Positions 21,144 through 40,939 of a stretch of 51,650 nt of DNA are shown piece after piece; the stretch's first letter is position 1, and each line of letters starts with the position of its first letter. The notes below the pieces were generated by a model that saw only the letters and a program-made list of their open reading frames with translations, had not been told where the DNA came from and ran no database searches. The stretch lies in contig PKYB01000075.1 in NCBI GenBank assembly GCA_003133565.1, positions 1 through 51,650 of the forward strand. The letters are read 5' to 3'. The position numbers and the translations under genes are program-made. The DNA comes from Solirubrobacterales bacterium. GTDB taxonomy: Bacteria; Actinomycetota; Thermoleophilia; Solirubrobacterales; Solirubrobacteraceae.

Positions 21144-21340
21144 TGTTGCTGCCGCAAGTGCATGAGGAGCTGAAGCGCGCGGCCGCGCGTCCTCGCGTCG
21201 TCAGGCGCGTAGGTGGCCGAGTCTCGCGCGCCGTCGTGGCCGCGCTGCTGGTGCTGCTCGTCGCCGCGCCCGTCGCGCAAGGCCACTTCCCGGGCCATCC
21301 TGTGCATGCTTCCTCCTCGCAGTCTCGCGAGTCGGCGTGA
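21143..21340 (+). CDS. 65-residue single-span membrane peptide, candidate anti-sigma partner
   Basis: Frame 21143-21340 begins with ATG inside the sigma-factor stop (TGATG) and ends overlapping the lepB GTG. It has a basic N-terminus (residues 1-29, VHEELKRAAARPRVVRRVGG), one membrane segment (VVAALLVLLVAAPVAQG, near 31-47) and a short outside tail with three His (GHFPGHPVH). Topology and coupling suggest it controls the sigma factor, but it lacks a zinc anti-sigma HxxxCxxC motif and matches no family I recognise. Confidence 0.6.
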   Translation: MLLPQVHEELKRAAARPRVVRRVGGRVSRAVVAALLVLLVAAPVAQGHFPGHPVHASSSQSRESA

Positions 21341-21957
21341 GCCTCCGCAAGCTCGCGCGCGGCAACCAGGTAGTCGAGTTCGTCGTAATCGTCGGACTTG
21401 CGCTCGCCCTGGCGTTTGCCATCCAGGCCTACATCGTCAAGCCCTACCGCATCCCGAGCGGCTCGATGGAGCCGACGCTCGCGATCGGTCAGCGCGTGCT
21501 CGTGGATCGCATCGGCAACGACTTCTTCAGCCCGTCGGTGGGCGACATCGTCGTCTTTCATCCGCCGGCCGGCGCGACCGAGCCCGGTGACGGCACCTGC
21601 GGCGCGCCCCAGACGGGGAACGAGCCGTGCCCGCGGCCGACTCCCCACGAGGCGGCCGTCAACTACATCAAGCGCGTCGTCGCGGTGGGAGGAGACACGA
21701 TCGCGATCGTGGGCGGTCACGTGATCCTCAACGGCACCCTCCAGAAGGAGCCGTTCGCAAACTTCGCCGGCTGCAAGAACGACCCGACCTGCGACTACTC
21801 GACGCCAATCAAGATTCCCCGTGGCTACTTCTTCATGATGGGCGACAACCGCGACAACTCCGATGACAGTCGCTTTTGGGGCCCGGTCCCCGACGCATGG
21901 ATCATCGGCATCGCCTTCGCCACCTACTGGCCGCCAGACCGTATCGGCATCTTCTAG
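21337..21957 (+). CDS. lepB: signal peptidase I
   Basis: LepB cleaves signal peptides of exported proteins at the membrane surface. An N-terminal membrane anchor (VEFVVIVGLALALAFAIQAYIV) is followed by box B IPSGSMEPTL with catalytic Ser near residue 43, box D YIKRVVAVGGD with catalytic Lys near 112, and box E MGDNRDNSDDSRFWGPV near 168-184. GTG 21337 overlaps the stop of the small membrane peptide. Length is 206 residues. A relic of a second lepB lies 730 bases downstream. Confidence 0.96.
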   Translation: MSLRKLARGNQVVEFVVIVGLALALAFAIQAYIVKPYRIPSGSMEPTLAIGQRVLVDRIGNDFFSPSVGDIVVFHPPAGATEPGDGTCGAPQTGNEPCPRPTPHEAAVNYIKRVVAVGGDTIAIVGGHVILNGTLQKEPFANFAGCKNDPTCDYSTPIKIPRGYFFMMGDNRDNSDDSRFWGPVPDAWIIGIAFATYWPPDRIGIF

Positions 21958-22038
21958 TGTGCCTCGTTGACGTAGCCTGACCACGCTGCCAGCACACCAC
22001 GCCGCGCCACTGGTGCCAGGACCAGGAGGACCTTCCGC

Positions 22039-22512
22039 ATGTCGCAGTTTGCGCTTCGTCCAGTAGGAGTTGCGGATCTCGACGCGATCTTCGAGCAGAT
22101 GCGCGACCCGGAGTCAGTACACATGGCGGCATTCACAGCTGAAAACCCGAGCGATCGAAGGGCCTTCGACGCCCACATGGCAAAGATCATGTCCTCCTCT
22201 GAGAACCGGCTTCGGGCGATCATCAGCGATTCTCGGCTCGTTGGCACCATCGCGAGCTACGTCTCCGAGGGAGCGACCGAGGTCACCTACTGGATAGATC
22301 GCAGCTGCTGGGGGCAAGGGATTGCGACGCGGGCGCTCAGCCTGCTCCTCGAGGAGTTCTCAGTTCGGCCGATCCGAGCCCGTGCTGCGAGCGACAACGC
22401 CGGGTCGCTGCGAGTCCTTGAGAAGGCGGGCTTTCACCCGATCGCTACGGAGGTGTCCTATGCCCCGGGACGGACGGCCGAGATCGAGGAGACCGTTCTC
22501 GAGCTGCCCTGA
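22039..22512 (+). CDS. GNAT-family N-acetyltransferase (RimJ/RimL type)
   Basis: A 157-residue GNAT protein of the kind that acetylates protein N-termini or small amines. It begins FALRPVGVADLDAIFEQMRDPES, has the acetyl-CoA motif WIDRSCWGQGIATRALSLLLEEF near residues 84-106 and the motif B segment ASDNAGSLRVLEKAGFHPIAT near 116-136. An AGGAGG ribosome binding site lies about 12 bases upstream, unlike most neighbours. It stands between lepB and rnhB, which are normally adjacent, so it was probably inserted there. Confidence 0.88.
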   Translation: MSQFALRPVGVADLDAIFEQMRDPESVHMAAFTAENPSDRRAFDAHMAKIMSSSENRLRAIISDSRLVGTIASYVSEGATEVTYWIDRSCWGQGIATRALSLLLEEFSVRPIRARAASDNAGSLRVLEKAGFHPIATEVSYAPGRTAEIEETVLELP

Positions 22513-22689
22513 ACACCAAGGGCGCAAGTCTCCCAGGCGGCGCGCCGTTGCAACCGGGCCCGCCGCGACGTCCTCGCTGACGCCGCCACCCGAAACTCGC
22601 CTCCACTCCACCGGATCAACGCGGCGACGCAGCAAACGCACTTCCGGCGGCCTCCGTCGCGGCGCATCGGAGCGCCAAATGTGGCCTAA

Positions 22690-22824
22690 TTGACGGCGAT
22701 CGAATTTGCCGCCGCCAGCTACTTCATCATGGCCGACAATCGTGGCGACCCTGCCGACAGCCGCTCCTGGGGACCCATCCCCGCCGCGCGGATCATCGGC
22801 CAAGGCTCCGCCAAGGCGCGCTAG
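22690..22824 (+). pseudogene. relic of a second signal peptidase I gene (box E only)
   Basis: In frame with TAG at 22822-22824 is a 44-residue stretch containing YFIMADNRGDPADSRSWGPI followed by PAARIIG. It aligns with box E of the intact LepB 850 bases upstream (MGDNRDNSDDSRFWGPV, then PDAWIIG). No upstream Ser or Lys boxes are found between the GNAT gene and this piece, so only the C-terminal part of a lepB copy remains. The 177 bases before it (22513-22689) show nothing else. Confidence 0.7.
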
Positions 22825-22915
22825 CGGATCGGCCTCCTCCAACGCCCGCTCGCGCCGGGCGGCGCGGCGGCGCAACAGCGGTCACCGCCTGTTCGCGTTT
22901 GACCGCGCGCTCGGG

Positions 22916-23506
22916 GTGCGGCTCGTCGCTGGTGCCGACGAGGCTGGCCGAGGTTGCCTCGCCGGCCCGCTAGTGGCGGCTGCCGTGCTCTTCGACTATC
23001 AAACGCTGAGCACGCGCGAGCTACGCTCGCTCGCGGCGCTCAACGACTCCAAGCAGCACGACCACGCGGCGCGCGAGGAGCTCTACCCGCGCGTGCTCGC
23101 AAGCGCCCACGCCGTTGCGGTCGTCTCGCGCTCGGTGCGCAGCATCGACGGCAGCGGGCTGCACGTGACCAATCTCGCTGCGCTCGGCGACGCGCTTGCG
23201 GCGGTTGCCCGCGAGGGCTGTCTGTGTCTCATCGACGGGTTCGCCGTGCCCGACTTTGGCCACGAGCAGCGGGCGATCGTCGACGGGGACGCCACGAGCG
23301 CCGCCATCGCGGCCGCGTCGATCATCGCCAAGGTCACCCGCGATCGCTTCATGCATCGCGCCGACGCGCTGCACCCAGCCTGGCAGTTTGCGACGCACGT
23401 CGGTTACTCGACGCCCGAGCACCGGGCGGCGATTGCCCGCCACGGCGTGTCGCCGCTACATCGGCTGTCGTTCCAGTCGACGGCATACGAGCAGCTCGCG
23501 CTGTAG
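22916..23506 (+). CDS. rnhB: ribonuclease HII
   Basis: RNase HII removes ribonucleotides from DNA. The signature GADEAGRGCLAGPLVAAAV carries the first catalytic Asp and Glu; DGFAVPDF, DGDATSAAIAAASIIAKVTRD and HVGYSTPEH follow, so the catalytic set is complete. GTG 22916 is the only usual start codon after the lepB relic and gives 196 residues, near the E. coli length. The frame is open back to TTG 22706, and homologues may begin a little upstream (LFAFDRALG), so the start is unsure. The last 110 bases belong to a 324-bp direct repeat. Confidence 0.9.
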   Translation: MRLVAGADEAGRGCLAGPLVAAAVLFDYQTLSTRELRSLAALNDSKQHDHAAREELYPRVLASAHAVAVVSRSVRSIDGSGLHVTNLAALGDALAAVAREGCLCLIDGFAVPDFGHEQRAIVDGDATSAAIAAASIIAKVTRDRFMHRADALHPAWQFATHVGYSTPEHRAAIARHGVSPLHRLSFQSTAYEQLAL

Positions 23507-23720
23507 GGATTCAGCCGATCGCCTCGAGCTGGTCGAGGGCGACGAGACGGCCCTGAGCGTCGATCACGACGCCGACGGCATCCAAGCGGAGCTCTGGACG
23601 GTGCGGATGTTCCGGGTGGGCGGCGAGCCACTCGGCCGCGACAATGCGCATTCGCCGCAGCTTGCGCGGCGTGATCGAGACGAGCGGATCGAGCCCACCG
23701 GCAAGTCGCGTCTCGACCTC
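23397..23720 (+). repeat. 324-bp direct repeat, copy 1 (rnhB 3' end plus yraN 3' end)
   Basis: Copy 1 aligns without gaps to 24805-25128 with 18 mismatches by my count (about 94% identity). It holds the last 110 bases of rnhB and, on the opposite strand, the last 70 codons of yraN. The two copies start exactly 1408 bases apart. Confidence 0.92.
23511..23720 (-). pseudogene. 3' fragment of yraN within repeat copy 1
   Basis: On the minus strand this encodes the C-terminal 69 residues of YraN, ending LVALDQLEAIG and stop at 23511-23513, with no frameshift. The N-terminal nuclease half is missing because homology ends at 23720. The intact gene is 1408 bases downstream, so this is a duplication remnant. 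Confidence 0.85.
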
Positions 23721-23721
23721 C

Positions 23722-23892
23722 CAATTCGCGGATTACACTAAGCGACTCGTTCTCCCGCCATTCGTCGGCGAGCAACCCTGTTGCGCGCGCTGTGGCGCTG
23801 CCGTGGACGGGGCGGTGTACTGCGCCGACAACTGTCGCAAGGGCGCCTCTCGTGTGCGGCTCAGCGAGACGAGCCGCCGCGTCCCAGCGTAG
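23722..23892 (+). pseudogene. startless Cys-rich zinc-finger fragment at the repeat junction
   Basis: The frame reads EQPCCARCGAAVDGAVYCAD then NCRKGASRVR, a CxxC-C-xxx-C short zinc-finger pattern seen at the ends of some actinobacterial proteins. No start codon exists between the repeat boundary (23720) and the motif; the frame only opens inside the repeat. It is best read as the tail of a gene cut at the junction. Confidence 0.45.
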
Positions 23893-23923
23893 ATCTGTGA
23901 GCGCGGCGGGGGTCGCTAGCCGC

Positions 23924-24724
23924 TTAGGTAGGCACGGAAACGACGCGCGGACGCAGCCGTGCCATCGTGTAACCGAGCAGGTGCTGAAAATGCTGTTGCC
24001 CGACCCCCAACAACGGTACATCCTCGCCCCTGGCGAGCAGCAACGGGCACCCGGCCGAGGAAAGGCGCTCAACGATCGCGGTGTGCAACAACCAGCGCGC
24101 GTACGACGCACTCGACATCAAGGCATACAGGAGGGCGCACTCAGTGTCGACGACGAGCCACGCCCAAGCGACGGTAGCGCCGCTGGAGTCGACCGCCTCC
24201 CAGTACTCAGCCGGAGTAATCGAGCGCAGCCCTCTGTCGAACGCCGACCACTCCGGAACGTCATCGGAGCGGCACCGGTAGCCAGCCTCATCTGCTCGGT
24301 GGAGGTTAGTGCGGAGCGCGTGACGGGGGCGCCCGCGCATGTACGTCGGGAAGTCGCTCGGAATCTCCAGGACTCCCTGTGCCAGTTGGTAGCGCGGCAC
24401 GCCAAAGCGACGCCTGCAAGCGAGATGCTCCGAGATGAACCGTCCAGGCGGGCTATCCGAAAGCGACACGGGGAGCGGGCGGGCCCCGCAGGAGAAAAGA
24501 AAAAGGACCGGCAACCGAATCAGCAGTCGCGGGACCGCACGCCTGCGACCGAGAACTCGCTGGTACTCGTTGGCCAACCGCAGGTGCCTGCTCGGGTAGC
24601 GCTGCCCGTGCACGCGAGCAGGGTAACAATTCCGATCTCCCGTAGACGCCCCGCTGGCGGGCGGGGGGAAATCCGCAGACGGGCCCATGCCCGGAGTACG
24701 CTCCGCGTCTTGTTCTATCGCCAT
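23924..24724 (-). CDS. GNAT/FemAB-like acyltransferase-like protein in the inserted segment
   Basis: A 266-residue protein, probably starting further in than the longest frame (a GTG near 24613 begins HGQRYPSRHLRLANEYQRVL). The segment FPTYMRGRPRHALRTNLHRA near residue 125 and the later hydrophobic strand WAWLVVDTECALLYALMSS resemble the two-lobed GNAT fold of FemAB or BioF2-like acetyltransferases. I cannot assign a substrate. It is the only sizeable gene in the 1.1 kb of non-repeated DNA between the two repeat copies and is absent from the usual rnhB-yraN layout, so it was probably acquired. Confidence 0.5.
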   Translation of the reverse strand: MAIEQDAERTPGMGPSADFPPPASGASTGDRNCYPARVHGQRYPSRHLRLANEYQRVLGRRRAVPRLLIRLPVLFLFSCGARPLPVSLSDSPPGRFISEHLACRRRFGVPRYQLAQGVLEIPSDFPTYMRGRPRHALRTNLHRADEAGYRCRSDDVPEWSAFDRGLRSITPAEYWEAVDSSGATVAWAWLVVDTECALLYALMSSASYARWLLHTAIVERLSSAGCPLLLARGEDVPLLGVGQQHFQHLLGYTMARLRPRVVSVPT

Positions 24725-24804
24725 TGTCGGCGAGAGGCCGACGTGGGCGCACTGCGGTGGCGACGTCGAGGGGACTTTGTAACTGATCGGATCGCTGCCG
24801 GAAG

Positions 24805-24914
24805 ACGTCGGTTACTCGACGCCCGAGCATCGGGCGTCGATCGTCCGCCATGGCGTGTCGCCGCTGCATCGGCTGTGGTTCCAGTCGACGGCGTACGAGC
24901 GGCTCGCGCTGTAG
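24805..24914 (+). pseudogene. 3' fragment of rnhB within repeat copy 2
   Basis: It encodes VGYSTPEHRASIVRHGVSPL then HRLWFQSTAYERLAL and a stop, the last 36 codons of rnhB with four amino-acid changes and no frameshift. Nothing upstream of 24805 resembles rnhB. Confidence 0.85.
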
Positions 24915-25128
24915 GGATTCAGCCGATTGCCTCGAGCTGGTCGAGGGCGACGAGACGGCCCCGAGCGTCGATCACGACGCCGACGGCATCCAAGCGGAGC
25001 TCTGGACGGTGCGGATGGTTCGGGTGGGCGGCGAGCCACTCGGCGGCGACGATGCGCATTCGCCGCACCTTGCGCGGCGTGATCGAGAAGAGCGGATCGA
25101 GCCCACCGGCAAGTCGCGTCTTGACCTC
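24805..25128 (+). repeat. 324-bp direct repeat, copy 2
   Basis: Second copy of the rnhB/yraN junction, gapless against 23397-23720. The yraN side continues into an intact gene; the rnhB side is a fragment. Confidence 0.92.
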
Positions 25129-25287
25129 AACGAAGACGATCGTCGCCGCGTCGCAGACGACGAGGTCGAGCTCACCCGAGCGCGTGTGCTTGTTGCGTCC
25201 GAGAAGCACAAAACCGCGTCGCTGGTAGTGCTCAAGGGCAAGGCGCTCGCCAATCCGGCCTAGCAGCTGCTGGCTCGTTGGGGCCAT
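24919..25287 (-). CDS. yraN: YraN/UPF0102-family predicted nuclease
   Basis: The YraN family has a PD-(D/E)XK Holliday-junction-resolvase-like fold. The motif GELDLVVCDAATIVFVEVKTR near residues 38-58 carries the acidic and Lys residues expected for metal-dependent cleavage. Length is 122 residues. It is convergent with rnhB and its last 70 codons lie in the direct repeat. The ATG at 25287 has a minus-strand -10 box (TAGCGT) six bases upstream. Confidence 0.92.
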   Translation of the reverse strand: MAPTSQQLLGRIGERLALEHYQRRGFVLLGRNKHTRSGELDLVVCDAATIVFVEVKTRLAGGLDPLFSITPRKVRRMRIVAAEWLAAHPNHPHRPELRLDAVGVVIDARGRLVALDQLEAIG

Positions 25288-34756: not shown

Positions 34757-36109
34757 GTGCTCGGCGCGCGCAACAGGGAGCTTGTCGGGCTGATACCGGC
34801 CGCGTTGATCGTCACCGCCGGTTTCGCAGCGATCTTTATTCAGAGCCAGAGCAAGCTGTCGGGTGTTTCGCTCACCTACGGCGCCGCGTTCCTCGCGCTC
34901 TGCCTCGCCGCGCACATGGTGATTCGCCGCGCCACGCCCTTTGCCGATCCCTATCTCTTCCCGCTCGCCGCGGTGCTGGCGAGTGTCGGCCTCGTCGAGC
35001 TCTATCGGATCGGCAACTACCCCGGCGTGTCTGACTTCGCGCGCGAGCAGGGTCAGTGGATGGTCGTCGGTCTGCTGCTGTTCTCGCTGACGCTCGTGGC
35101 GTTGCGCGACGGGCGCTACATGAAGCTCGAGAACTACCGCTACCTGATCGCGATCGTGGGTGTCGGAAGCCTCCTGCTGCCTAGGCTTCCGGGGATCGGT
35201 GCCGAGGTCAACGGTGCTTACCTCAGCGTGCATGTCGGCTCAATCACCTTCGAACCATCCGAGCTCGGAAAGATCGCAATCGTGATCTTCCTCGCGTCAT
35301 ACCTGCGCGACAACCGCCAGCTGCTCGTGACCGCAGGCAAGCGGATCCTCTGGGTCACGCTGCCGCCGATGAAGCAGTTCGGTCCGCTGCTGCTGGTCTG
35401 GGGTTCGGCGATGGGCGTGCTCCTTGTGACGCGCGAGATCGGGACGTCGCTGATGTTTTTCGGTGTTTTCCTCGCGTTGCTCTACGTCGCCACGGGACGC
35501 TTGTCGTTCCCCTTCCTTGGGCTGCTGCTGTTTGCCGCCGGTGCGTACTACCTCGGCACGCACGTGGGCCACATCTATACGCGGGTCCTCTCTTGGGAGC
35601 ATCCGTTCGACAAGAATCTCTACTACGAGCCGAATGGCAGCTATCAGCTCGCGCAGTCGTTGTTCTCGCAGGCCGATGGCGGCGTGATCGGCACCGGCTT
35701 TGACCAATCGATTCTGTGGTCAACGGTCAACGGTCACGCCAATTCGCTCATCCCAATCCCCGAGAGCGACATGATCTACGCCGTCATCACCAACGAGACC
35801 GGGTTGGTCGGGGCGACCGGGCTGCTCGTCGTCTATGTCCTTTTCATCGCGCGCGGTTTGAAGATCGCCACGCTTGCGCGTGACTCGTTCTCAAAGCTGC
35901 TCGCGACCGGCTTGGCGTTCGTCGTCGCGATGCAGGTCTTCGTGATCGTTGGCGGCGTCACCGACCTGATCCCGCTGACCGGCGTGACGTTGCCGTTTGT
36001 GGCCTACGGCGGCTCGTCGGTGGTAATGAACTTCGTCCTGCTGGCGCTGTTATTGCTCGTCTCCGACCGGGCCCGGCGTCCGGTCGATTACAGCGAGCGA
36101 GCCGATTAG
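34757..36109 (+). CDS. SEDS-family peptidoglycan glycosyltransferase (FtsW/RodA/SpoVE)
   Basis: A polytopic membrane protein of 450 residues with about ten membrane spans. SEDS hallmarks include FEPSELGKIAIVIFLASYL near residue 175, YQLAQSLFSQADGGVIGTGF near 300, IPIPESDMIYAVITNETG near 331 and LPLTGVTLPFVAYGGSS-type (LIPLTGVTLPFVAYGGSS) near 407. SEDS proteins polymerise lipid II together with a class B PBP, and none lies beside this gene. The stop overlaps the dnaE2 stop by four bases on the other strand. Whether it serves division or elongation cannot be told. Confidence 0.92.
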   Translation: MLGARNRELVGLIPAALIVTAGFAAIFIQSQSKLSGVSLTYGAAFLALCLAAHMVIRRATPFADPYLFPLAAVLASVGLVELYRIGNYPGVSDFAREQGQWMVVGLLLFSLTLVALRDGRYMKLENYRYLIAIVGVGSLLLPRLPGIGAEVNGAYLSVHVGSITFEPSELGKIAIVIFLASYLRDNRQLLVTAGKRILWVTLPPMKQFGPLLLVWGSAMGVLLVTREIGTSLMFFGVFLALLYVATGRLSFPFLGLLLFAAGAYYLGTHVGHIYTRVLSWEHPFDKNLYYEPNGSYQLAQSLFSQADGGVIGTGFDQSILWSTVNGHANSLIPIPESDMIYAVITNETGLVGATGLLVVYVLFIARGLKIATLARDSFSKLLATGLAFVVAMQVFVIVGGVTDLIPLTGVTLPFVAYGGSSVVMNFVLLALLLLVSDRARRPVDYSERAD

Positions 36110-39100
36110 CGTCGCCGCCCTGAGCCGAAGCTCTGAATCGGCGGCGCGACTGCGCGCAGATCGGCAGCGGCGCCTCGCTGATCAGGATCGGCGGGCGAGT
36201 CGACCTCGCGCACCGGCAGATGACTGATCGATGCGGTGGCCTCCGCGAGCTCCTCTTCGAGCGTACGTAGCTCCCGCACGAGCACGTTGATCGTGCCGCC
36301 ACCGGCAGCTGGACGCTCGAGACGGCCGTCGGCGAGGATCAGCGGCTCCGCGCGAACGATGTGACGCCGGCGCTCATAGAGCGTGGGGGAAACAATCAGG
36401 TTGATCACGCCATGCTCGTCCTCGAGCAGCAGGAAGACGACACCGCTAGCGGTCTCCGGTCGCTGGCGGGCGACGACGAGTCCCGCCACCGAAACTGAGG
36501 CTCCGTGATGCAGGCGGGCGAGCTCCGTGCTGGTGGTAGCGCCGGCAAGCCGTGGACGCAGGATCGCCAGGGCGTGATCGTCGATTGTCACACCGCTTGT
36601 CGCGTAGTCGGCGAGCAAGCGCTCCCAGCGGCTGAGCTTGCGCAGCTGTGGCGGCGGGCCGCTGTCGAGCGCGAGCGCGAGCTGGGTGCCTCCGGCGACG
36701 CGCCGTCCGGGTATGGCCACACCGAGTGCCCACAGCGCAGCGCGACGGCTTCCCGCAAGCGCGTCGCAGGCGCCCGACCAGGCGAGCTGCTCGAGCGAGG
36801 GGCGCGCTAACGGCACGCGCGCGACGAGCTCGACGACGCTGGTGAACGGTCCTTCCGCCTCACGCGCGGCGACGAGCGCTGCGACCTCCTCGCTACGCAC
36901 ACCACGCACGTAGCCCAGGCCGATGCGCACCGCGCCCGCCAGCCGTCCATCCTCGCGCGGGGACGGCAGAGAAGCCTCGACAGTGCACTCCGCGCCGGAG
37001 GCGTTGACCTCAACAGCGCGCAGCTCGATACCTCGTCGCTGCGCCTCGTGCGCGAGGCTGTCAGGCGGGTAGAAGCCCATCGGCTGCTCGTTGAGGAGCG
37101 CACAGAGGAACTCGGGCCCATAGTGCACGCGCAGCCAGCTCGACTGGTAGGCGAGCAGGCCGAAGGCCGCGCTGTGTGCCTTGGGAAAACCGAAGCCCGC
37201 GAAGCCCGCGACCATCTCCCAAACCTGCTGCGCCAGGGCGGGATCGGCGCTGACGTGACGGCGGGCACCATCGATGAAGCGTTCGTGGTAGCGCTCGATC
37301 GCCGCGGTCGCGCGCTTACGGCTCATGGCTCGGCGCAGACCGTCGGCCTCACCGGGACCAAAGCCGGCGAAAGCCTGGGCGACCTCGAGCACCTGATCCT
37401 GAAAGATGATCGTGCCGAGCGTCTCGCGCAGGACAGCGGCAAGCGAAGGATGCAGGCAGGGAGGCTCGTAGGAGGGGTCTTCCCGCAGTTGCTGGCGGCG
37501 CTGGATGTAGGGGTTCACCGCGCCGCCCTGGATCGGCCCGGGACGGATGATCGCCACCTGTATGGCGAGCTCCTCGAGGTTCTCTGGTCGTGTCCGCCGC
37601 AGCGACTGCATCTGCGCGCGGCTCTCGACCTGGAACACGCCGGTGGTCTGCGCATCCTGGATCGCGGCGAAGGTCGGCGGGTCGTCGAAGGGGATCCGTG
37701 AAAGGTCGATCCGCTCGCTGCGCGTGCGGGCGATCAACTCGACACAGCGCTCGACCGCGGAAAGCATGCCGAGCCCGAGCAGGTCGATCTTGAGAAAGCC
37801 GGCGTCAGCGCAGGAGTCCTTGTCCCACTGCACGAGCTGGCGTCCCTCCATCGCCGCCGGCACCACCGGGCAGCAGTCGATCAGCGGCTGCGTCGCAACG
37901 ATCATTCCGCCCGGGTGCTGGGAGACATGGCGTGGCAACCCGAGCGCCTCCTGGGCGAGGTGCTCGAGCCAGACCCAGCGTCCGCTGCGCGAGCGCGCTC
38001 CCAGCGCGCTTGCGAGGTCGCGATCGATGTGATGGCCAAAGCCGTCGGCGCCGCGCGCGACGCGCTCGATCTCGGCTGGTGGCAGTCCGAGCGCCTTGCC
38101 GAGCTCGCGAATCGCGCCGCGCGCGCGGAAGCTCGGGAAGGTTGCGACCAGCGCCGCACGATCGCGTCCGTAGCGGTCGTGGACACGACGGATCAACAGT
38201 TCGCGGATGTCGCGCGGGAAGTCGAGGTCGATATCGGGCAGCGAGCTCAGCTCAGGGTTGAGAAAACGTCCAATCCCGAGTCCGCTCGAGAGAGGGTCGA
38301 TGTGCGAGAGCCCGGTGAGGAAACAGACGATCGAGGACACCGAGGAACCCCGTCCGCGTCCCGGCGGCAGCAGCGCCCGCGCTGAATCCGCTCCGCGTAT
38401 CTCGATCGCGACCTCGCGCGAGAGCTCGAGGATCTCGTGGTGCAGCAGGAAGAACCCGGCGAGCGAGAGTTTCTCGATGACGGCCAGCTCCTCTTCGAGT
38501 CGAGCGCTAGCCTGGCGGAGCGCCACTCGCTGGTAGCGCTCGCGCAGGCGCGCACCGCAGAGCTCTGCGAGGCGTCGCCCAGCGTCTGGATCCTCGACGC
38601 CGGGATAGCGGTAGCCGAGGTCCGCGGCGAGGTCGAAGCGCAGCTGCTCGGCGAGCAGCGCGCTCTGCGCAAGTGCGTCCGGATAATCGGCGAAGCGCGC
38701 TGCCATCGCCGCCGGCGAGGTGAGGACGTGGGCGCTGTTGGGTCGTCGCACCGGTTCGCTTGACTCGAGCGTGAGGTGGTGGCGCAGCGCGACGAAGGCG
38801 TCCTGCAATGGAGCGCGCGAGTGGGCGTGAGCGTGGACGTTGCCGGTTGCGACGCAATGCAGTCCCAGCCGGCCGGCGAGGGCGACGAGCATGGCGTTGC
38901 GGGCGCGGTCGCCGGCGAGAAACGGGCGCTGGAGCTCGACCCGCAGCCGCTCCCTGCCAAAGGCCTCCAGCAGCATCCGCATTCCCGCCATGTCGTGTAC
39001 GCCGCGCTGCGCACAACCGGTGAGGCAAACGAGGCCTTCGCTGTGAGCACAAACGCTCGCCAGTGTGACGGCGGGGGCGACAGGGTCACGCAGACGATCG

Positions 39101-39396
39101 CGGGTATGCGCGTGGGCGATGCTCAGCAGGCGGCAGAGGTTGCGCCAGCCACGCGCGCAGGCGACGAGCAGCGTGAGGTGGCGTCCGTCGTCAAGGCTCA
39201 GCTCCGCACCGTGGATTGCTCGCAGCCCAAGCCCACGGGCGGCCTGGGCGAACTCCATCGAGCCCCAGACGCCGTCGTGGTCGGTGAGCGCGAGAGTTTT
39301 GTAGCCGAGTTCGAGCGCTGCGACGACAAGCTCCTCCGGCAGCGAGGCGCCGTCGAGGAACGAGTATGCGGAGTGGCAGTGCAGCTCGGTGTACAT
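36106..39396 (-). CDS. dnaE2: error-prone DNA polymerase DnaE2 (ImuC)
   Basis: A C-family polymerase of 1096 residues that copies damaged DNA and causes SOS mutagenesis. The PHP domain starts YTELHCHSAYSFLDGAS; the catalytic aspartates lie in LPDIDLDFPRDIRELL near residue 387 and in the palm; GRGRGSSVSSIVCFLTGLSHIDP and FPKAHSAAFGLLAYQSSWLR are typical. The C-terminal OB fold (VSVAGLVVARQRPETASGVV) is retained. It is the last gene of imuB-DUF6504-dnaE2, 41 bases after DUF6504, and should be LexA-controlled. ImuA is not in the window. Confidence 0.95.
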   Translation of the reverse strand: MYTELHCHSAYSFLDGASLPEELVVAALELGYKTLALTDHDGVWGSMEFAQAARGLGLRAIHGAELSLDDGRHLTLLVACARGWRNLCRLLSIAHAHTRDRLRDPVAPAVTLASVCAHSEGLVCLTGCAQRGVHDMAGMRMLLEAFGRERLRVELQRPFLAGDRARNAMLVALAGRLGLHCVATGNVHAHAHSRAPLQDAFVALRHHLTLESSEPVRRPNSAHVLTSPAAMAARFADYPDALAQSALLAEQLRFDLAADLGYRYPGVEDPDAGRRLAELCGARLRERYQRVALRQASARLEEELAVIEKLSLAGFFLLHHEILELSREVAIEIRGADSARALLPPGRGRGSSVSSIVCFLTGLSHIDPLSSGLGIGRFLNPELSSLPDIDLDFPRDIRELLIRRVHDRYGRDRAALVATFPSFRARGAIRELGKALGLPPAEIERVARGADGFGHHIDRDLASALGARSRSGRWVWLEHLAQEALGLPRHVSQHPGGMIVATQPLIDCCPVVPAAMEGRQLVQWDKDSCADAGFLKIDLLGLGMLSAVERCVELIARTRSERIDLSRIPFDDPPTFAAIQDAQTTGVFQVESRAQMQSLRRTRPENLEELAIQVAIIRPGPIQGGAVNPYIQRRQQLREDPSYEPPCLHPSLAAVLRETLGTIIFQDQVLEVAQAFAGFGPGEADGLRRAMSRKRATAAIERYHERFIDGARRHVSADPALAQQVWEMVAGFAGFGFPKAHSAAFGLLAYQSSWLRVHYGPEFLCALLNEQPMGFYPPDSLAHEAQRRGIELRAVEVNASGAECTVEASLPSPREDGRLAGAVRIGLGYVRGVRSEEVAALVAAREAEGPFTSVVELVARVPLARPSLEQLAWSGACDALAGSRRAALWALGVAIPGRRVAGGTQLALALDSGPPPQLRKLSRWERLLADYATSGVTIDDHALAILRPRLAGATTSTELARLHHGASVSVAGLVVARQRPETASGVVFLLLEDEHGVINLIVSPTLYERRRHIVRAEPLILADGRLERPAAGGGTINVLVRELRTLEEELAEATASISHLPVREVDSPADPDQRGAAADLRAVAPPIQSFGSGRRR

Positions 39397-39437
39397 GACT
39401 TGCCCAATGACCCCGCTCAGCTCAGCTCCCGCTCGGC

Positions 39438-39680
39438 TCAGCGCTGGCGCAGCCAGCGTCCGCTGGCGAGGTCGTGGAAGACGACGAAGTCACGACCCGA
39501 CTCGCTGACGAGCTCCCAATAGCGACGGCGCAATGGCTGCTCGGTCCACCAGCGGTCTTCGACCAGCCACGACTCACGCACATAGGCAACCGACTGACCA
39601 TCGACCGCGAGCGGCGTGCCCCCGGAGGTGGCTCGCACGCGCGCGGCGCGCGGCAGGAACAGGCGTCGCGGCCCAGTCAC
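39438..39680 (-). CDS. DUF6504 family protein of the mutasome operon
   Basis: An 80-residue basic, Trp-rich protein (SWLVEDRWWTEQPLRRRYWELVSE; FVVFHDLASGRWLRQR) of the type found between imuB and dnaE2 in actinobacteria. GTG 39680 overlaps the imuB stop by four bases, so translation is coupled. No function is established; the location suggests an accessory part in translesion synthesis. Confidence 0.82.
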   Translation of the reverse strand: MTGPRRLFLPRAARVRATSGGTPLAVDGQSVAYVRESWLVEDRWWTEQPLRRRYWELVSESGRDFVVFHDLASGRWLRQR

Positions 39681-40864
39681 GACTCAAACGGGGCGAGCAT
39701 CATGTGACGCTCAGGGACACGTGAGTCGGGCTCCAAAAGGCATATCCGCAGGGCGGCATCGGCTCCTGCGGCAATGCGCATCTGACTGACTGCCTCGCGC
39801 AGCCGCGCGCGGCGCTGCTGGTCGGCTTGCTCAAAAAGTGCGCTTTGCTCACCGCCCGCCGGGCCAAAGCGCTCGACGGCGAGCATGAGCATGTCCGCCG
39901 GCGAGGGCAGCAGCGCCAACCGCGGGGCAAGTGCGAGCGCCATCCTCCGCGGCGCGGCCAGGGCCTCGCGGAAGGTGACGCTGGTACGCCAACTACCGCC
40001 GTCGAGGAGTCGCGCGCCAAGCGTTGCCGCGCGCAGTGTGCGTCCACGCCGTTCCGGCCGCGCGAGCAGTCGATCGATCAGTACGCCGAGCGCACGCTCG
40101 AGCGCCGGTCCTCCAGCTGCTTCAGTGAGCTCGAACCGTTCCACCAGCGGCTCTTCGACGCTCCGTGGGCGGGGCGGATCATCCTCGCCGCAGGCCAGCC
40201 GGTGGGCCCCTATCCCCGCCGCACCGAAGCGGTCGGCGACTGCGCTACGTGGCAGCGACGCGAGCTCGCCGAGCGTTGCGATCCCGAGCCGTTCGAGCGT
40301 CCCCACCAGCGGTGCGGTGCGCTCGCGCGAGCGCAGCAGCGTAATTGGCAGTGGCGCCAGGTATTCGCGCGCGCTGCCACGGACGATCAGCGTGCGGCGA
40401 GGGCGGGTTGCGAGTGCGCCAGCGAGTGCGCAAAAGCGGGTTGGCGCGGCGGCGATCCGGGCCGGGCGGTCGAGCGCGCGGCGGGCCGCGGCTAGCACAA
40501 GCTCGTCTGAGCCTCCGTGGATGCCACGCAGTCCATCCAGCGCAAAGCAGGCGAGTCCGGGCCGTTCCGGATCGACGCCGGCGCCGATCTGCTCGAGCGT
40601 GCGCAGCGTTCGCTCCCAGGCGCTGGCGACAGCCATCGGGTCGGCACTGACGAGCTCGAGCGCTGGGCAGCGGGCGAGTGCTTCGCTGAGCGGCATGCCG
40701 CTGCGCACGCCATATGCCTCCGCGCCACCGGAGGTCTCGCCAAGCAGACCACTGCCTGCCGAACGGTGCTCAGCGGCGATTGCCAGGGCACGTCCCGCGA
40801 TCGCCTCCAGCCCGCCGGCGGCCACCGTCAGCTCAAAACGGGGGAGGAGGATGCAGGCGATCAT
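39677..40864 (-). CDS. imuB: ImuB, catalytically inactive Y-family polymerase
   Basis: ImuB joins DnaE2 to the sliding clamp in SOS mutagenesis. It has the Y-family fold but not the catalytic acids: the first motif reads MIACILLPRFELTVAAGG where active enzymes have DMDAFF. GVRSGMPLSEALARCPALELV and the helix-hairpin-helix LERLGIATLGELASLP follow, and QSALF near residue 344 is a likely clamp-binding motif. ATG 40864 is preferred to ATG 40882 because the six extra codons are the LexA site itself. This gives 395 residues. Confidence 0.93.
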   Translation of the reverse strand: MIACILLPRFELTVAAGGLEAIAGRALAIAAEHRSAGSGLLGETSGGAEAYGVRSGMPLSEALARCPALELVSADPMAVASAWERTLRTLEQIGAGVDPERPGLACFALDGLRGIHGGSDELVLAAARRALDRPARIAAAPTRFCALAGALATRPRRTLIVRGSAREYLAPLPITLLRSRERTAPLVGTLERLGIATLGELASLPRSAVADRFGAAGIGAHRLACGEDDPPRPRSVEEPLVERFELTEAAGGPALERALGVLIDRLLARPERRGRTLRAATLGARLLDGGSWRTSVTFREALAAPRRMALALAPRLALLPSPADMLMLAVERFGPAGGEQSALFEQADQQRRARLREAVSQMRIAAGADAALRICLLEPDSRVPERHMMLAPFES

Positions 40865-40865
40865 A

Positions 40866-40879
40866 CGAACACATGTTCG
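40866..40879 (-). promoter_or_regulatory. LexA SOS box upstream of imuB
   Basis: CGAACACATGTTCG is a perfect palindrome of CGAAC and GTTCG around four bases, the actinobacterial/Gram-positive LexA consensus. It ends one base before the imuB ATG at 40864, so LexA would cover the transcription start. It also lies about 90 bases from the divergent kelch gene. Confidence 0.92.
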
Positions 40880-40939
40880 CATGCCTCGGAGCCGAGTGCA
40901 AGCCGCCGCTCAGCGGACAACAAAGCTCCCGTTCCGCCT

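What the first reader, a model, noticed from the sequence alone, without database searches (positions are those of the whole stretch)
23397..25128. 324-bp direct repeat of the rnhB/yraN junction flanking 1.1 kb of foreign DNA
Positions 23397-23720 and 24805-25128 align without gaps with 18 mismatches. The left copy completes rnhB but leaves a yraN fragment; the right copy completes yraN but leaves an rnhB fragment. This is the structure left by a single crossover between the chromosome and a circle of 1408 bp (324 + 1084) carrying a related rnhB/yraN junction plus an acetyltransferase-like gene. The 5.6% divergence suggests the donor was another strain or species. It could loop out again by recombination.
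Basis: partly seen in the sequence, partly recalled or inferred. Interest (0 to 1): 0.65.

Follow-up and report, generated by a model that had tools for sequence, protein, structure and literature searches.

The report
Old insertion flanked by duplicated gene ends
The repeat is real, but a sister species has the same broken-gene boundary around a different insert, so it is probably an old, still recombining insertion site and not the fresh footprint of a circle from another strain; it is a modest curiosity of genome evolution.

Summary
The interpretation (one crossover with a circle from another strain) is only partly supported. Three results point to something older. (1) A same-genus MAG (G003, bog_583) shows the same layout: a yraN fragment broken at the same codon, a different 2.9-kb insert, and an rnhB scrap. 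Its fragment is 95% identical to its own yraN and 60% to this genome's. (2) The insert is bounded by a nested 121-nt repeat (R1/R2, about 66% identical) that abuts both junctions. Its start, "L", recurs at the G003 junction, beside an integrase/HipBA module in G003, and weakly on another contig here, with different left flanks. (3) The mismatches look like decay of useless fragments: four replacements in rnhB', K56E in the YraN fragment. Best reading: an insertion-plus-duplication older than the species split, its flanking copies homogenised by gene conversion while the cargo turned over. Cargo: a FemAB/GNAT-like gene with relatives (about 49% identity) in another Solirubrobacterales family. 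The mechanism of origin is unresolved. Both genomes are draft MAGs; the G003 layout is inferred from contig ends.

The parts
22850..23506 (+). rnhB, complete (start codon uncertain)
   Evidence: Pfam RNase_HII 7e-33; 86-90% identical relatives in the genus
23397..23720 (.). left copy A of the 324-nt repeat (rnhB 3' end + yraN 3' part)
23511..23720 (-). yraN' fragment, codons 54-122, K56E in the ExK motif
23721..23841 (+). R1: 121-nt sequence abutting yraN'; its first ~52 nt = L, also at the same junction in G003 and at G003:C40
23924..24724 (-). cargo ORF, 266 aa, FemAB/GNAT-like; homologues about 49% identical in another Solirubrobacterales family
24684..24804 (+). R2: second copy of R, about 66% identical to R1, abutting rnhB'
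   Evidence: 0 of 2000 shuffles reach the score
24805..25128 (.). right copy A' of the 324-nt repeat
24805..24914 (+). rnhB' fragment (last 36-37 codons), four replacements
24919..25287 (-). yraN, complete
   Evidence: Pfam UPF0102 9e-19

Best explanation
An old insertion with duplication at the rnhB/yraN junction. In a common ancestor of this species and G003, DNA beginning with sequence L was joined to yraN at codon 54 while an intact rnhB-yraN junction was kept, giving rnhB - yraN' - insert - rnhB' - yraN (the shared junction is shown; ancestry is inferred). Since then the two flanking copies have been kept alike inside each genome by RecA-type gene conversion or unequal exchange (inferred), while the insert has diverged or been swapped: here a FemAB/GNAT-like gene between two R copies, in G003 2.9 kb of other genes (shown). 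Sisters G001 and G002, without the duplication, may have lost it by recombination between the copies, or never had it (inferred). The locus now acts as a passive cargo site: recombination between A and A' can homogenise or delete, and essential rnhB and yraN stay intact either way.
For: G003 contig C1 carries yraN' (aa 54-118) at one end and an rnhB 3' scrap at the other; contigs C46 (complete rnhB) and C11 (complete yraN) stop in the same junction. Fragment versus own yraN: 95.7% (here) and 95.1% (G003); between species 60%, the pattern of concerted evolution. Same breakpoint within 1 nt, and the next 52 nt match at 35/52 with a one-base offset, while random 46-nt pairs of the two inserts averaged 12.7 and never exceeded 25. 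R1/R2 66% over 121 nt, ending exactly at both A borders. rnhB differences: four nonsynonymous, at least three clearly derived in the fragment; three synonymous derived in the working copy; working copies differ 15:3, 12:2 and 12:1. Order rplS-lepB-rnhB-yraN-comM is conserved in the family with a 19-54-nt rnhB-yraN gap, so the uninterrupted state is ancestral.
Against: Gene conversion is inferred from two genomes, not observed. G003's layout is read from contig ends without sequence overlap, and its C1 could be a separate circle. Independent insertions by a site-specific element would also give the same breakpoint. The syn/nonsyn contrast rests on few sites; in the yraN part it is uninformative because YraN itself evolves fast (22:20 between species). 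One of the three-way outgroup sites is ambiguous (Q>R is shared with G003).
Confidence: 0.5

Rival explanations
1. Site-specific integrative element, comparable to e14 in icd: an integrase-borne element recombined at the conserved ExK codons of yraN and supplied a replacement yraN 3' end (with an rnhB scrap captured earlier), so that the working gene is a hybrid and the displaced 3' end remains as yraN'. Both X inserts would be decayed, non-autonomous remnants; L is the element end.
For: L begins at the same nucleotide in four different left contexts (yraN' in two species, a spacer after hipA, the cargo's 5' region, contig C30). In G003 an L copy lies about 390 bp from hipA in a tyrosine-recombinase/HTH_17/HipBA module. 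The target gene is kept whole.
Against: No integrase or phage gene in either X. In each species the supplied 3' end matches that species (95%) and not the other (60%), so the element cannot have moved between them recently. No attP-like core was demonstrated.
Confidence: 0.22
2. One reading: recent single homologous crossover between the chromosome and a small circle (1408 bp) carrying the rnhB/yraN junction of another strain or species.
For: Topology fits exactly; the cargo gene is foreign to the genus.
Against: Same layout and breakpoint in a sister species; decay-type differences; nested diverged R repeat. Nothing like it in plasmids, phages or viral contigs.
Confidence: 0.12
3. Insertion between sister chromatids during uptake of linear DNA (homology at one end, end-joining at the other), once in each lineage, leaving a duplication around the insert.
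For: Interchromatid integration of donor DNA generating tandem duplications is documented in pneumococcus (PMC3784515); homology-facilitated illegitimate recombination was proposed to leave displaced 3' remnants in Vibrio T6SS clusters (PMC5361080).
Against: Two independent events would not be expected to share breakpoint and insert edge. As the one ancestral event it is compatible with the best explanation.
Confidence: 0.1
4. Assembly artefact: two strain variants of the same junction joined in a metagenome assembly.
For: Both genomes are MAGs, this one 86% complete in 103 contigs.
Against: Longest exact run in the repeat is 55 nt; the insert has unique sequence on both sides; a second, unrelated MAG shows the same boundary.
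Confidence: 0.06

Closest known systems
Partial gene duplications kept alike by gene conversion in bacterial genomes (e.g. pe_pgrs/ppe pairs in M. tuberculosis, PMC12046097)
   Same: Close repeats; within-genome similarity far above between-genome similarity
   Different: Here gene fragments flank a variable foreign insert and one partner at each end is a dead scrap; conversion is inferred only
Integrative elements that replace the 3' end of their target gene (e14 in icd; from general knowledge)
   Same: Target gene kept whole, displaced 3' fragment left on the far side, sharp recurring element end
   Different: No integrase in the insert; the duplicated arm spans two genes; no att core shown
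Displaced 3' gene remnants in Vibrio T6SS/Rhs loci (PMC5361080)
   Same: New cargo at a fixed place with partial gene copies left behind
   Different: Proposed there by homology-facilitated illegitimate recombination; here both housekeeping genes stay intact and the copies are 95% identical
Integron gene-cassette arrays
   Same: Short conserved repeat beside single-gene cargoes, head to tail (R1-ORF-R2)
   Different: R does not fold like attC

Membership tests
Campbell-type insertion from a recent donor circle | Direct repeats of the homology arm flank the insert, with each native gene complete on its own side | tested here: met
Campbell-type insertion from a recent donor circle | Donor arm differs like a working gene of a related strain (mostly synonymous) | tested here: not met
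   rnhB part 5 syn: 4 nonsyn against 15:3, 12:2, 12:1 between working copies; few sites, and the yraN part is uninformative
Campbell-type insertion from a recent donor circle | Absent from sister species at the same breakpoint | tested here: not met
   G003 C1
Old duplication with concerted evolution | Copies cluster by genome and not by position | tested here: met
   95.7% and 95.1% within, 59.6-60.1% between
Old duplication with concerted evolution | Conversion tracts seen between strains | not testable with these tools
   one genome per species held
Integron cassette | attC-like single-strand hairpin | tested here: not met
   z-scores from -0.72 to 1.39 for eight strands
Integron cassette | IntI integrase in the genome | not tested
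   not searched
Integrative element replacing a gene 3' end | Integrase encoded within the element | tested here: not met
   none in X of either genome by Pfam, NCBIfam and PHROGs
Integrative element replacing a gene 3' end | Sharp terminus recurring in unrelated flanks | tested here: met
   L in four left contexts; the C30 copy is weak (E = 0.003)
Insertion sequence / transposon | Transposase, terminal inverted repeats, short target duplication | tested here: not met
   no transposase; flanking repeat is 324 nt; no matching inverted repeat at the insert's ends

The most novel reading that the evidence does not exclude
L marks the end of an undescribed, genus-restricted mobile unit that carries one to a few cargo genes without its own recombinase, stacks head to tail (R1-cargo-R2 here), and has a preferred landing site at the conserved catalytic codons of yraN, where it leaves or brings a duplicate of the rnhB/yraN ends so that both genes survive.
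Probability: 0.22. Interest if true: 0.6.

Novelty: new variant of a known kind. Interest (0 to 1): 0.33.

Why it matters
If the reading is right, this is a compact natural case in which duplicated ends of two housekeeping genes are held together by recombination over species-level time while the DNA between them changes. Such a site can take up and lose foreign genes without harming rnhB or yraN. It also warns against reading a few percent divergence between flanking repeats as the distance to a donor strain: gene conversion resets that clock. L, if it is a mobile end, would give uncultured Solirubrobacterales a cargo system that can be looked for.

Tried and rejected
Cargo protein in plasmids, phages, IMG/VR and genome contigs: no relative; the whole unit in plasmids: none. 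R as a coding domain: the 59-aa translation gave only chance hits (FtsH and the like) in 146 genomes; third-position bias in RLVLPPF is suggestive, but the C40 copy has a frameshift. R as attC: no hairpin. R as Rfam RNA or tRNA: none. The right edge of the G003 insert first looked like a second shared element end; it is partly a dispersed intergenic motif of the genus, and the G003 contigs that stop at 'GTGAGGCTGTCGCGTAAA' stop at another repeat whose downstream ORF resembles an insertion sequence by eye only, so I do not claim a shared right end. A first viral-contig scan for L used a mis-spaced pattern; corrected scan: none. The lepB fragment upstream of rnhB first looked like a second insertion of the same kind; G001 has two full lepB genes in tandem there, so it is more simply a decayed paralogue.

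Full report
Observation. The two 324-nt stretches align without gaps with 18 differences and are by far the strongest repeat in the contig. The window is one whole contig (C42) of a 2.68-Mb, 103-contig MAG, a solirubrobacterial lineage whose nearest held relatives are Stordalen-type bog, palsa and fen MAGs. rnhB is completed by the left copy and yraN by the right copy. The left fragment starts exactly at yraN codon 54, the E of the ExK motif. The repeat holds no exact run longer than 55 nt, so ordinary short-read assembly should not confuse the copies.

The insert has structure. Its first 121 nt (R1, 23721-23841) and last 121 nt (R2, 24684-24804) are an imperfect direct repeat, about 66% identical; none of 2000 dinucleotide-preserving shuffles reached the score. 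R1 abuts yraN' and R2 abuts rnhB' to the base. The order is therefore A - R1 - core - R2 - A'. The core carries one ORF (23924-24724, minus). It is absent from 60 relatives and from plasmids, phages and viral contigs, but has homologues at 44-49% identity in five genomes of one genus of another family, with conserved RGRxRxAxRTN and ARWLLHTAIVERL blocks. Two homologues touch the LPG synthase C-terminal domain weakly; 'FemAB/GNAT-like' is the most that can be said.

A sister species has the same junction. In G003 (bog_583), contig C1 (3135 bp) has a yraN fragment (aa 54-118) at one end and a short rnhB 3' scrap at the other. C46 stops inside the end of complete rnhB, and C11 stops just past complete yraN. 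This is what a broken assembly of rnhB - yraN' - insert - rnhB' - yraN would look like. A separate circle would give the same contigs, so the linear layout is inferred. The yraN'/insert boundary is the same within one base, and the adjacent insert sequence is homologous (35 of 52; random pairs of 46 nt mean 12.7, maximum 25). The rest of the insert is unrelated. G002 has the plain junction, and G001 has a 470-bp insert with a small ORF between intact genes. Other genera have a 19-54-nt gap.

Age and homogenisation. Over the yraN part, fragment and working copy are 95.7% identical here and 95.1% in G003, while the species differ at 40% of sites. If the junction is shared by descent, the copies must have been homogenised within each lineage. 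The alternative is independent arrival at the same base. In the rnhB part the fragment has A>S, A>V, S>W and Q>R; the first three fall on residues that both intact relatives keep. The working copy carries three synonymous changes of its own. Between species the working RnhB ends differ 15:3, 12:2 and 12:1 (synonymous:nonsynonymous), against 5:4 here. In the yraN part the ratio says nothing, because YraN evolves fast, but K56E hits the motif lysine. The numbers are small; they favour decay in place over a donor's working gene.

Sequence L. A sequence profile of the first 51 nt of R1, R2 and the G003 copy found an unseen fourth copy in G003 (C40, E = 1e-6), which is 85% identical to the C1 copy over 106 nt. 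A refined profile over 146 family genomes found strong copies only in this genome and G003, and a weak one at the end of this genome's contig C30 (E = 0.003). In all five the similarity begins at the same place, while the upstream 20-40 nt agree only where they are yraN. The C40 copy lies about 390 bp beyond hipA in a module with a tyrosine recombinase and two HTH_17 proteins. L does not fold and is no Rfam family. It behaves like the end of something mobile, but no recombinase is tied to it and no second end is established.

Weighing. An old insertion with duplication, later homogenised, accounts for the shared boundary, the within-genome similarity and the decay pattern (0.5). A site-specific integrative element that replaces the yraN 3' end accounts for L and for the choice of a conserved codon, but lacks an integrase and needs species-matched arms (0.22). 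Sister-chromatid insertion (PMC3784515) and homology-facilitated illegitimate recombination (PMC5361080) are known routes to such layouts and could have made the first junction. The e14/icd comparison is from general knowledge.

Limits. Two draft MAGs carry the argument; no reads, no coverage and one genome per species were available. Gene conversion is inferred. The outgroup sites are few.

Noticed in passing
window 21337-22823: lepB (21337-21957), an unrelated GNAT gene (22039-22512), then a decayed lepB 3' fragment (about 22697-22823, 74% identical to lepB over 95 nt) right before rnhB. G001 has two full lepB genes there, so the fragment is probably a decayed second lepB.
   Followed up: partly
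L036 3346-3817 (G001): A 470-bp insert with a small ORF on the minus strand between intact rnhB and yraN in the palsa_651 MAG; with G000 and G003, three of four genus members differ at this junction.
   Followed up: partly
L129 (G003:C40): Short contig with tyrosine recombinase, two HTH_17 (excisionase-like) proteins and an HTH_3/HipA pair, followed by an L copy and a secreted-looking ORF of no Pfam family.
   Followed up: partly
L129 6446-6511, L146, L147, L149, L152: Dispersed intergenic motif of the genus, about 50 nt around GCTTTGCCCGGCGAAAGGAGG (palindromic GCTTTCGCCGGCGAAAG in G002:C113).
   Followed up: no
G003 contigs C5, C8, C12, C30, C40, C63; G002 C67, C340: Many contigs stop at or near GTGAGGCTGTCGCGTAAA, the edge of another repeat; the ORF beyond it in C5 (MPQNFIQAGREQVFLMPPNMRDWLPDDHLA...) resembles an insertion-sequence transposase N-terminus by eye, fused to other sequence. 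Not tested.
   Followed up: no
L077, L086, L089: Records titled Bifidobacterium breve MAG encode RnhB 66-68% identical to this solirubrobacterial protein, in the range of other Solirubrobacterales; the organism labels look wrong.
   Followed up: no
window 36106-40882: A DnaE-type polymerase ORF (36106-39396) beside a Y-family-polymerase-like ORF (39677-40882), the arrangement of an ImuB/DnaE2 mutagenesis cassette; read from the translations only.
   Followed up: no
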